Shown here piece after piece: positions 26,045 to 27,304 of a stretch of 64,000 nucleotides of DNA (the first letter of the stretch is position 1; every line of letters starts with the position of its first letter). The stretch comes from Betaproteobacteria bacterium. Lineage in GTDB: Bacteria > Pseudomonadota > Gammaproteobacteria > Burkholderiales > SG8-39. The notes under the pieces are model-generated. The model made no database searches. It was not told where the DNA came from and was given only the letters and a program-made list of their open reading frames with translations. Made by a program: the position numbers and the translations under genes. The stretch is taken from positions 87,336 to 151,335 of the forward strand of contig JACPYS010000008.1 of NCBI GenBank assembly GCA_016195915.1, in the 5' to 3' direction.

Positions 26045-26614
26045 CTATTTCAGCTTTCCGAGGACCTCGAGAATCTCGTCATTGGGAACGACACCGCGCG
26101 GATCCGTGACTCTGGCGTAGCGAATGACGCCCTCTTTGTCGACCACGAACCACGAGCGTTTCGCGCGCAGATAGATGGCAATTCTTTTCACATCCTGTGC
26201 CATGGCGGGATCGTCATTGAGTACACCATAGGCGCGCGTCATGCCCCTGCCTATGTCGGTCAATAACGGGTACTTGAGACCAAGCTTCTCGCCCCAAGCC
26301 TGGTTGGCACCGTTGAAATCTACACTGATGCCCAGGACCTGGGCATTTGCCGCCTCGAACTTGGGAAGATCAAGTTGGAAGGCCAGCGCTTCCTGCGTTC
26401 ACGTATTGGTGAACGCGCCGATGTAAAAAAACAGCACCAGGTGCTGCCGTCCCGCAAAATCGGCGAGCTTGATTTCCTTGCCCGTGCTCGAGGCCAGCGC
26501 GAAATTCGGCGCCTTGTCCCCGACTTCCAGCGCGAGCGCCGCGCTGCCCGAGAGCAGAGCGGAACTCGCGAACGCGATGCCTGCCAGCCAATGCTTCCAT
26601 CGATGCGATGTCAT
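26045..26614 (-). CDS. Periplasmic peroxiredoxin with in-frame TGA at the catalytic position (putative selenoprotein)
   Basis: Read through one TGA, this is a 189-residue AhpC/TSA-family peroxiredoxin with a signal peptide (WLAGIAFASSALLSGSAALA) and GDKAPNFALASSTGKEI at the mature start. The TGA is codon 72, in LFFYIGAFTNT-[TGA]-TQEALAF, exactly where the T-x-x-C peroxidatic cysteine belongs. The frame stays open and homologous on both sides (LPKFEAANAQVLGISVDF, then YPLLTDIGRGMTRAYGV) to the stop at 26045. GGAGG precedes the ATG. The whole protein then contains no Cys at all, so it would be a 1-Sec peroxidase needing an outside reductant. A pseudogene caused by one stop mutation is the alternative. 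Confidence 0.85.
26377..26401 (-). promoter_or_regulatory. SECIS-like hairpin after the peroxiredoxin TGA
   Basis: In the mRNA sense, UGA (26401-26399) is followed five bases later by GGAAG, a 7-base loop CGCUGGC, and CUUCC. The 5-bp stem is perfect and the loop has G in its second position, as bacterial SECIS elements often do. Low information content makes the match suggestive only. Confidence 0.45.
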
Positions 26615-26655
26615 GCGATCCTCCTTTTCACAATGAACTGCTCGAATTGCCCACG

Positions 26656-26679
26656 AGGCATGAGCGTAGGCTCATGCCT
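26656..26679 (-). other. Intercistronic 10-bp hairpin between the two TGA-containing genes
   Basis: AGGCATGAGC (26656-26665) and GCTCATGCCT (26670-26679) form a perfect 10-bp stem with a 4-base loop. It lies in the 71-base gap between the thioredoxin-like and peroxiredoxin genes. No T-tract follows on either strand, so it may stabilise or partly attenuate the message. Confidence 0.6.
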
Positions 26680-26685
26680 GCCCTG

Positions 26686-27249
26686 CTACGGACTTGCTGC
26701 CAGCGCCTTGACGTAATTGCGAAACGCCGGACTCAAGAGGTCGATGGGCCCATACCCGCCAGCCACGACTGCTCCACTGCGATCGATCACGACGGTCCAC
26801 GGCACCACGCGCACGCCCAGCGCGCGCGCGACCTGCATGTCGGGATCGAGCGGCGCGGGCACCGTGTATTTGTGCTCGGCCATCAACGGGCGCACGGCCT
26901 GCGCGCCCTGCCCGTCGATCGAGATCGCGAGCACGGCAACACCGCCCTTGTGGTACTCCTCTCGTGCCCTCTGCACGGAGGGCATCTCGCCTACGCAGAT
27001 GCTTCACCAACTCGCCCAGAAGCGGGCCACCACGACCTTGCCGCGCAGTTCGTCCGCACGCAGATTTCCGCCGGCGGCAGTCTGCAGATTGAATGCCGGC
27101 GTTCGCGTCGCTGTGGCCGGCGCAGCAAGGCCGGCGGGCAGCGGAGGCAGACCGGCTGCGTTGGCCGCCGACATGCCCAGCGCCAGCAGGCCGGCAAGAA
27201 GCGTCCGCAGAGACTTCAACGCGCCTGCGCGGAATTGTTCTATCGACAT
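26686..27249 (-). CDS. Exported TlpA/thioredoxin-like protein with in-frame TGA at U-x-x-C (putative selenoprotein)
   Basis: Read through one TGA, this is a 187-residue TlpA-like thioredoxin fold protein with a signal peptide (LLAGLLALGMSAANA). TGA is codon 82 in ARFWASW-[TGA]-SICVGEMPSVQ: the usual W-C-x-x-C active site with the first Cys replaced and the second (residue 85) kept. The strand-loop VRVVPWTVVIDRSG carries the cis-Pro. C85 is the only cysteine. Start ATG follows a perfect GGAGG, while the second half has no good start of its own. It lies upstream of the peroxiredoxin in the same direction and probably reduces it in the periplasm. Confidence 0.85.
26982..27006 (-). promoter_or_regulatory. 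SECIS-like hairpin after the TlpA-like TGA
   Basis: In the mRNA sense, UGA (27006-27004) is followed after one base by GCAUCU, a bulged G, CG, the loop UAGG, CG and AGAUGC. The 6-bp lower stem is perfect and a single-base bulge sits below a short apical stem. This resembles the shape of bacterial SECIS elements, which have a bulge and a G-containing apical loop. Confidence 0.5.
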
Positions 27250-27304
27250 CGCAACCTCCTCCGGAAGCAGCCGTGACGGGAAACTCACCAGCGATTCTGT
27301 CAGC

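What the first reader, a model, noticed from the sequence alone, without database searches (positions are those of the whole stretch)
26045..27249. Tandem pair of putative periplasmic selenoproteins: U-x-x-C thioredoxin-like protein followed by T-x-x-U peroxiredoxin
Two neighbouring genes on the same strand are each interrupted by exactly one in-frame TGA, and in each the TGA replaces the redox-active Cys: codon 82 in FWASW-[TGA]-SIC and codon 72 in GAFTNT-[TGA]-TQE. Both frames stay homologous on both sides and both genes have GGAGG sites and signal peptides. Two independent stop mutations landing exactly on the catalytic Cys of adjacent redox genes is very unlikely. TGA is a normal stop elsewhere in the window (many ATGA overlaps), so the code is not reassigned. 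Individual Sec-containing peroxiredoxins and UxxC thioredoxins are known; I do not know of this exported two-gene operon as a described system.
Basis: partly seen in the sequence, partly recalled or inferred. Interest (0 to 1): 0.95.

Follow-up and report, generated by a model that had tools for sequence, protein, structure and literature searches.

The report
Exported selenoprotein peroxidase and reductase pair
Two neighbouring bacterial genes each carry a single in-frame UGA codon exactly where cysteine-using relatives have the catalytic cysteine, an arrangement found side by side in 46 related DNA records, and they are predicted to make a secreted pair of selenium enzymes in which one would destroy peroxides and the other would likely recharge it.

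Summary
They are very likely selenocysteine codons, not decay. 52 of 53 related loci keep the Prx TGA (the 53rd, 28% identical, has Cys); of the 48 with the upstream gene on the contig, 46 keep its TGA and two have Cys. Cys homologues exist for both proteins; dN/dS is low after each TGA. The Trx TGA is followed by a covarying SECIS-like hairpin; the Prx hairpin is weaker. selA, selB and selD are in the genome; selC is not in the assembly, but 36 of 38 other operon genomes tested have it, against 54 of 145 relatives without the operon. The mature Prx has Sec as its only redox residue in 52 of 53, so the adjacent U-x-x-C protein is its likely reductant. This conserved pair, and the replacement of the canonical PxxxTxxC proline by I/V/T, turned up in none of nine literature searches. 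Selenium incorporation, export and the relay are untested. New variant of a known kind.

The parts
26686..27249 (-). Trx-U gene: ResA/TlpA-like thiol oxidoreductase, 187 aa, U82-S-I-C85, signal-peptide-like N-terminus, TAG stop
   Evidence: translation; Pfam; fold ResA/TlpA; 45 relatives of at least 160 aa listed
27004..27006 (-). in-frame TGA, codon 82, at the first Cys of the CxxC motif
   Evidence: aligned with the first Cys of ResA; Cys in P0124, L115, L117
26965..26984 (-). SECIS-like hairpin of the Trx gene, 7 bp stem and CGTGCA loop, starting 19 bases after the TGA
   Evidence: 98.1% of 315 cells paired, 3 pairs with two-sided changes; three loop codons invariant; the window's own lowest-energy fold is a competing hairpin
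27255..27262 (-). GGAGGAGG ribosome-binding site of the Trx gene
   Evidence: sequence
26045..26614 (-). Prx-U gene: AhpC/TSA peroxiredoxin, 189 aa, T69-N-T-U72, no Cys, signal-peptide-like N-terminus, TAG stop
   Evidence: translation; Pfam; fold Bcp4/AhpE
26399..26401 (-). in-frame TGA, codon 72, at the peroxidatic Cys
   Evidence: alignments; Cys in P0014, P0015, P0019, P0033
26351..26384 (-). candidate SECIS hairpin of the Prx gene, starting 14 bases after the TGA
   Evidence: 90.0% of 528 cells paired, but not better than a slid control on all measures
26620..26624 (-). GGAGG ribosome-binding site of the Prx gene
   Evidence: sequence
26615..26685 (-). 71-base spacer between the two genes (11-84 bases in 46 relatives)
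   Evidence: sequence

Best explanation
Two adjacent genes each have one in-frame UGA exactly at the catalytic-cysteine codon, and they most likely encode an exported two-selenoprotein peroxidase system in which a peroxiredoxin with predicted selenocysteine as its only redox residue would be recharged by a U-x-x-C thioredoxin-like partner. Shown by sequence: the TGAs, their conservation, the Cys homologues, the operon-like spacing, the selection on both sides, the hairpin after the Trx TGA, and selA/selB/selD in the genome. Inferred: SelB with tRNA-Sec reads both UGAs, helped by a hairpin that starts 14-19 bases downstream. Inferred: both proteins are exported. Inferred chemistry: the Prx selenolate U72 attacks a hydroperoxide and becomes a selenenic acid. 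The mature Prx has no resolving Cys, so U82 of Trx-U attacks that selenium, and C85 then releases reduced Prx and leaves a selenenyl-sulfide on Trx-U. A membrane DsbD/CcdA-type reductase would re-reduce Trx-U; the genome has three DsbD_TM matches.
For: 52 of 53 genome-contig loci have TGA at Prx codon 72; 48 of these 52 have the Trx gene in the contig, 46 with U82/C85 and 2 with C82/C85. Three of these loci (L076, L078, L109) are the same as hits. Trx stop to Prx start is 11-84 bases in 46 of 46. Cys forms: Prx P0014, P0015, P0019, P0033; Trx P0124, L115, L117. Median dN/dS in the 42 codons before / all codons after the TGA: Prx 0.295/0.258, Trx 0.425/0.395. Terminal TGA stops in 10 of 53 Prx and 14 of 47 Trx. 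From U-42 to the end: one U and no C in 52 of 53 Prx; one U and one C in 46 of 47 Trx. Trx hairpin. selA 567, selB 399, selD 431 bits, all over the cut-offs. tRNA-Sec in 36 of 38 operon genomes tested against 57 of 149 own-and-relative genomes, 54 of 145 without the operon (Fisher 3e-11). The genome carries another TGA gene over the cut-off of a curated family named for its Sec motif, NF041054, 502 against 300 bits. Signal-like N-termini in 49 of 51 Prx and 44 of 46 Trx. Three DsbD_TM matches.
Against: selC is not in the assembly, and 2 of 38 operon genomes also lack a hit. The Prx hairpin does not beat all controls (slide +1 has the higher covariation score, 203 of 500 shuffles reach the number of two-sided pairs), and the window's own Trx segment prefers a competing fold. 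Signal peptides were judged by a simple rule, not a trained predictor. In L115 and L117 the partner is CxxC, so Sec in the Trx is not essential to the pairing. The pair is not the only shared feature of these loci: a TctC-family receptor gene lies within 500 bases in 33 of 53 sequences, though not in the window. There are no protein-level data; that Trx-U reduces Prx-U rests on adjacency and chemistry only.
Confidence: 0.78

Rival explanations
1. Both genes make exported selenoproteins, but they are not partners: Trx-U works like ResA/TlpA on cytochrome c or copper-centre maturation, and Prx-U is recharged by another thiol donor.
For: The best structure matches of Trx-U after 3kcm are TlpA and ResA; adjacency is not proof of a reaction; a TctC receptor gene is also often adjacent.
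Against: Prx follows Trx within 84 bases in 46 of 46, while other neighbours vary; the mature Prx has no resolving Cys in 52 of 53. Other neighbouring gene clusters were not identified by family, apart from TctC, so a cytochrome link is not excluded.
Confidence: 0.18
2. The genes are decayed: nonsense mutations in two dead redox genes.
For: selC is not in the assembly.
Against: The same TGA in 52 of 53 scanned Prx loci and 46 of 48 adjacent Trx genes, with Cys and never TAA or TAG in the rest; low dN/dS after the TGA.
Confidence: 0.01
3. TGA is read as another amino acid, for example tryptophan as in a code-4 organism, as several database entries show it.
For: 30 of the 120 listed database Prx homologues (of 535 found) have W at this position.
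Against: P0032 and P0035 are identical to L112 and L111 except for W where the DNA has TGA, so at least these are code-4 readings of the same DNA; TGA ends 10 of 53 and 14 of 47 of these very genes; other homologues have Cys; selA/selB/selD are present.
Confidence: 0.02
4. Both are selenoproteins and partners, but stay in the cytoplasm, with the N-terminal hydrophobic stretch uncleaved or an anchor.
For: No trained signal-peptide predictor was available; the Trx model has one long N-terminal helix, residues 4-33.
Against: Basic start, hydrophobic core and small-x-small site in 49 of 51 Prx and 44 of 46 Trx; ResA and TlpA relatives are extracytoplasmic (recalled).
Confidence: 0.05

Closest known systems
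Sec peroxiredoxin, T-x-x-U (Eubacterium acidaminophilum protein, title seen; NCBIfam PrxU NF040737, link between the two recalled)
   Same: AhpC/TSA family, Sec at the peroxidatic position, T-x-x-U
   Different: 46 bits against a cut-off of 270 for NF040737; signal-like N-terminus; motif proline replaced; paired with a gene for a U-x-x-C reductase
ResA-like WAxxUGC_long protein (NF041054) and Prx-like UxxC thiol:disulfide oxidoreductases (PMC13188914 table, passages)
   Same: Trx fold with Sec at the first active-site position
   Different: 71.8 bits against a cut-off of 300 for NF041054; UxxC rather than UGC; short, next to a Sec peroxiredoxin gene
Prx/SelW-like and Prx-like/AhpD-like selenoprotein gene pairs in ocean metagenomes (PMC2398784 passages; PMC13188914 section 9)
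   Same: two neighbouring selenoprotein genes, one a Prx or Prx-like
   Different: partner is SelW-like or AhpD-like there (one Prx/Prx-like 2 read as well); here a ResA/TlpA-like U-x-x-C protein, mostly in Betaproteobacteria
Sec-Grx for reduction of Sec-MsrA, 'Tandem use of selenocysteine' (seen only as a reference title in PMC13188914; content recalled)
   Same: one selenoprotein recharges another
   Different: different enzymes; not an exported two-gene unit as far as I recall
AhpE, 1-Cys peroxiredoxin of Mycobacterium tuberculosis
   Same: fold (TM 0.76 by query, rank 2); single redox residue recharged from outside (recalled)
   Different: Cys not Sec; 30% identity

Membership tests
Bacterial selenoprotein gene | in-frame TGA at a position where homologues have Cys | tested here: met
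   Prx: P0014, P0015, P0019, P0033; Trx: P0124, L115, L117
Bacterial selenoprotein gene | conserved reading frame after the TGA | tested here: met
   median dN/dS 0.258 (Prx) and 0.395 (Trx) after the TGA
Bacterial selenoprotein gene | SECIS hairpin shortly after the TGA, Trx gene | tested here: met
   98.1% paired, two-sided changes in 3 pairs, all slid controls lower; three loop codons invariant; but the window's own fold prefers a competing hairpin
Bacterial selenoprotein gene | SECIS hairpin shortly after the TGA, Prx gene | tested here: inconclusive
   90.0% paired; slide +1 gives a higher covariation score
Bacterial selenoprotein gene | selA, selB, selD in the same genome | tested here: met
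   all over the curated cut-offs
Bacterial selenoprotein gene | tRNA-Sec (selC) in the same genome | tested here: inconclusive
   not in this assembly; in 36 of 38 other operon genomes tested
Bacterial selenoprotein gene | selenium in the protein | not testable with these tools
   needs 75Se or mass spectrometry
AhpC/TSA family (Pfam PF00578) | score over the gathering cut-off | tested here: met
   113.7 against 26 bits; fold Bcp4/AhpE
Peroxiredoxin active-site signature P-x-x-x-T-x-x-C (recalled) | Thr at -3 of the peroxidatic residue | tested here: met
   T at -3 in 53 of 53
Peroxiredoxin active-site signature P-x-x-x-T-x-x-C (recalled) | Pro at -7 | tested here: not met
   I 45, V 6, T 2 of 53 (scan biased, see Tried and rejected); P in 4 of 4 solved relatives shown and in 4 of 4 Cys orthologues
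NCBIfam PrxU (NF040737) | score over the curated cut-off | tested here: not met
   46.2 against 270
NCBIfam ResA (NF002854) and WAxxUGC_long (NF041054) | score over the curated cut-off | tested here: not met
   76.9 against 170 and 71.8 against 300
ResA/TlpA fold group | structural match and active-site position | tested here: met
   U82 aligned with the first Cys of ResA CxxC
Known selenoprotein operons (grdAB, prdBC, frh-hdr, Prx/SelW, Prx-like/AhpD-like, SAO, Tso) | same partner genes | tested here: not met
   the list in PMC13188914 section 9 has no Prx plus ResA/TlpA-like pair

The most novel reading that the evidence does not exclude
A selenium-only periplasmic peroxidase circuit: a 1-Sec peroxiredoxin whose active site has been rebuilt around selenium, shown by loss of the canonical motif proline in all 53 Sec sequences examined while the Cys forms of the same family keep it, hard-wired to a Sec reductase so that electrons pass selenium to selenium. 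It spread as one two-gene unit through Betaproteobacteria and into Entotheonella and Tectomicrobia, with half-way forms (Sec peroxidase, Cys reductase) in Rokubacteria and a deltaproteobacterial lineage.
Probability: 0.35. Interest if true: 0.8.

Novelty: new variant of a known kind. Interest (0 to 1): 0.67.

Why it matters
It would put selenium chemistry in both halves of an extracytoplasmic antioxidant pair, in bacteria (by record title mostly uncultured Betaproteobacteria) for whose class a 2006 survey gave formate dehydrogenase as the only selenoprotein (PMC1794560, passages). Gene callers hide it: 85 of the 120 listed database Prx homologues (of 535 found) are fragments of at most 118 aa, nearly all beginning just after the TGA, and 30 carry W there. 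The family gives a natural series for a long-standing question, what Sec buys over Cys: Sec/Sec operons, Sec-Prx with Cys-Trx (L115, L117), and Cys forms that keep the motif proline. That makes the question testable with natural variants rather than mutants.

Tried and rejected
Pseudogene and TGA=Trp readings were rejected. tRNA-Sec in the own genome: RF01852 gave tRNA-Ser as best hit (46.7 bits, under the cut-off; 150 of 1065 candidates scored), the anticodon/T-arm pattern gave 0, a relative's selC as DNA gave only a 28-base match inside a tRNA-Ser gene, and ARAGORN and Rfam on about 111 kb around sel genes and other loci gave none except a degenerate tRNA-like element. Neighbours: my first clustering was muddied by overlapping frames of the pair; a second one on the flanks only showed that a TctC-family receptor gene is common there: hits in 40 of 53 sequences, within 500 bases of the pair in 33, of which 10 upstream on the same strand, 21 downstream on the other strand and 2 downstream on the same strand; 13 of 53, the window among them, have none in the flank held. 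The family is large in Betaproteobacteria (recalled) and I did not measure its background density. Other clusters were not identified by family. Weak Prx hits in relatives (G001, G022, G042, G135, 39-43% identity) were not counted as orthologues. L118 (Cys, 28% identity) was left out of all counts of the 52; the sets of 53 Prx and 47 Trx are the window plus loci that have the TGA. Bias to note: the two DNA patterns favour close relatives, one asks for I or T where canonical peroxiredoxins have P, and the Cys forms found match neither, so the 52 loci are not an unbiased sample of Sec against Cys or of the proline; the word-based search shows the same split (30 W forms with I/L/V/F, 4 Cys forms with P), but W was shown to be TGA in only two cases. 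The fifth C row (P0030) looks like a chimera and was not used. One search uses stricter filters, and the Fisher test ignores relatedness. One search was given 38 of the 52 loci; three more carriers (G094, G134, G143) have tRNA-Sec. No tree was built, so spread by transfer is untested.

Full report
What is there. On the minus strand of the window a 187-codon gene (26686-27249) and a 189-codon gene (26045-26614) follow each other with 71 bases between them. Each has exactly one in-frame TGA and ends with TAG. The first is a ResA/TlpA-like thioredoxin-fold protein, FWASW-U-S-I-C; the second an AhpC/TSA peroxiredoxin, GAF-T-N-T-U. In the alignments to solved structures the two TGAs fall on the first Cys of the ResA CxxC and on the peroxidatic position (one of the four Prx structures shown has Ser there).

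Not decay. A search of the own genome and 148 relatives gave three orthologues besides the window's own gene, 63-68% identical, from other genera, each with one TGA; two keep the upstream gene with its own TGA, and in the third the Prx lies at the contig start. A scan of genome contigs (one genome for each of 84,980 species, two peptide patterns) gave 53 loci. 52 have TGA at codon 72 and one, 28% identical, has Cys. Of the 52, 48 have the Trx gene on the contig: 46 with U82 and C85, two with C82 and C85 (L115, L117); in the other four the contig ends first. No second in-frame TGA was seen in these alignments. Three loci repeat hits, and L070 and L071 come from one genome. The gap from Trx stop to Prx start is 11-84 bases in 46 of 46. 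Median pairwise dN/dS is 0.295 in the 42 codons before and 0.258 after the Prx TGA (1184 and 1273 usable of 1378 pairs) and 0.425 and 0.395 for Trx (964 and 1022 usable of 1081). TGA is also the real terminator of 10 of 53 Prx and 14 of 47 Trx genes, so the codon is not reassigned.

Cys homologues. Database proteins P0014, P0015, P0019 and P0033 have Cys at the Prx position (59-62% identity), and P0124 has C-S-I-C at the Trx position (55%). Of the 120 listed Prx hits (of 535), 85 are fragments of at most 118 aa, nearly all of which start just after the TGA, 30 have W there and 5 have C (one C row, P0030, looks chimeric). Two of the W proteins equal L112 and L111 in every other residue, so W there is a code-4 reading of TGA. 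For Trx, 14 of the 15 best of 29 hits are fragments that begin after the TGA.

Decoding. The genome has selA, selB and selD over the curated cut-offs. selC was not found by covariance model, pattern or a relative's sequence. In five relatives selC lies 0.06-3.4 kb downstream of selB; here selB ends 1.7 kb from the end of contig C2, and selA is on another contig, so a gap is the likely reason but not proven. The same-genus genome G001, which has no orthologue of the pair, has selC. Of 38 operon genomes tested (38 of the 52 loci were given) 36 have tRNA-Sec; among 149 own-and-relative genomes 57 have it, 54 of 145 leaving out this genome and the three other carriers (Fisher 3e-11, relatedness ignored, filters stricter). 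The genome has two more TGA-interrupted redox genes on contig C1, one of them 502 bits against a cut-off of 300 for the family NF041054, WAxxUGC_long.

Hairpins. After the Trx TGA a 7-pair stem with loop CGTGCA starts 19 bases downstream. In 45 distinct sequences 98.1% of 315 cells pair and three pairs change on both sides; none of 500 shuffles reaches the covariation score (7 reach the number of pair types), and every slid control is lower on all measures. Read from the alignment, in L106 one pair changes from C-G to U-A through two amino-acid changes, and the common C-G to U-A change at columns 27/38 costs an Arg to Lys change; protein selection does not explain that. Three codons over the loop are invariant, TCC 46 of 46, GTG 47 of 47, CAG 47 of 47; the top codon has a mean share of 0.857 over the six conserved columns there against 0.635 over 21 elsewhere (p 0.01). 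The Prx hairpin is paired in 90.0% of 528 cells, but the slide +1 control has a higher covariation score, and codon conservation there is not clearly raised (p 0.06). The window's own Trx segment also folds into a competing hairpin.

How it likely works. From U-42 to the end, 52 of 53 Prx have Sec and no Cys, and 46 of 47 Trx have one Sec and one Cys. A 1-Sec peroxiredoxin needs an outside reductant; the constant neighbour with U-x-x-C is the best candidate. Both proteins have a basic start, hydrophobic core and small-x-small site in 49 of 51 and 44 of 46, so export is likely, and three DsbD_TM matches offer a source of electrons. These steps are inference.

Surroundings. One other gene family recurs: a TctC receptor (PF03401, 221.8 bits) lies within 500 bases of the pair in 33 of 53 sequences, in three different arrangements, most often downstream on the other strand; 13 of 53, among them the window, have none in the flank held. 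It is therefore not part of the transcription unit as a rule. Whether the closeness exceeds the background of this large family was not measured.

An unexpected detail. Canonical peroxiredoxins have P-x-x-x-T-x-x-C (recalled; P in 4 of 4 solved relatives shown). In all 53 Sec sequences that Pro is I (45), V (6) or T (2), while the four Cys orthologues have P. One scan pattern favours I/T there, so the sample is biased, but the database search shows the same split. Other Sec Prx types keep the Pro: the C1 gene of this genome and two relatives' genes (L040, L043). So Sec alone does not force the loss.

Against the literature. Sec T-x-x-U peroxiredoxins and U-x-x-C Trx-like selenoproteins are known families, and neighbouring selenoprotein genes are known: grdA-grdB, prdB-prdC, frh-hdr, Prx with SelW-like, Prx-like with AhpD-like, SAO, Tso (PMC13188914, section 9 read whole, other passages; PMC2398784, passages). 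PMC1794560 (passages) gives fdhA as the only selenoprotein of the Sec-decoding Betaproteobacteria then known. PMC9312934 and PMC1088965 were seen as passages. Nine searches listed no paper on this pair; other papers were seen as listings only, and most subscription journals are not in the library. The two window proteins do not reach the cut-off of any NCBIfam family listed for them.

Verdict. A real, conserved, very probably functional two-selenoprotein operon: a new variant of a known kind. The Sec assignment is close to certain; the relay and its place in the periplasm are likely but untested.

Noticed in passing
L029:8236-8700 (+), genome contig C1:38236-38700: A second peroxiredoxin with an in-frame TGA at AYPLAFTGG-U, without a signal-like start by eye; it keeps the motif proline. 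73 bits against a cut-off of 270 for NF040737.
   Followed up: partly
L029:10645-11739 (-), genome contig C1:40645-41739: A TGA-containing WAxxUGC_long gene, 502 bits against a cut-off of 300 for NF041054, 2 kb from the Prx above.
   Followed up: partly
L030:3616-4536 (-), genome contig C2; also L058, L059, L060, L061: A thioredoxin-reductase-like gene abuts selB here (260.5 bits against a cut-off of 343.45 for TIGR01292); similar frames lie between selB and selC in L058, L059 and L060 (by eye), and one next to selC in L061 (245.4 bits): possibly a reductase linked to Sec metabolism.
   Followed up: partly
flanks of the pair in L066-L114 and L116: A TctC-family receptor gene within 500 bases of the pair in 33 of 53 sequences, in varied orientation, absent near the window's pair. 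Background density not measured.
   Followed up: partly
L029:9646-9717 (-): A degenerate tRNA-like element, anticodon GTC by eye, 32.4 bits (cut-off 29), not called by ARAGORN, between the two C1 TGA genes.
   Followed up: partly
database proteins P0004-P0039 and P0070: Thirty Prx entries carry W at the Sec position, apparently from code-4 gene calling of short contigs (shown for two); a source of false code-4 assignments.
   Followed up: partly
L068, L069, L080, L088, L102-L104, L110, L113: Record titles name Chitinophaga pinensis (L068) or Bordetella parapertussis (the others) for MAG contigs that carry this operon; the names look wrong, but taxonomy was not checked.
   Followed up: no
L115 and L117: Operons with Sec-Prx but Cys-Trx (CxxC), in records titled Deltaproteobacteria and Rokuibacteriota: natural half-way forms.
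   Followed up: partly
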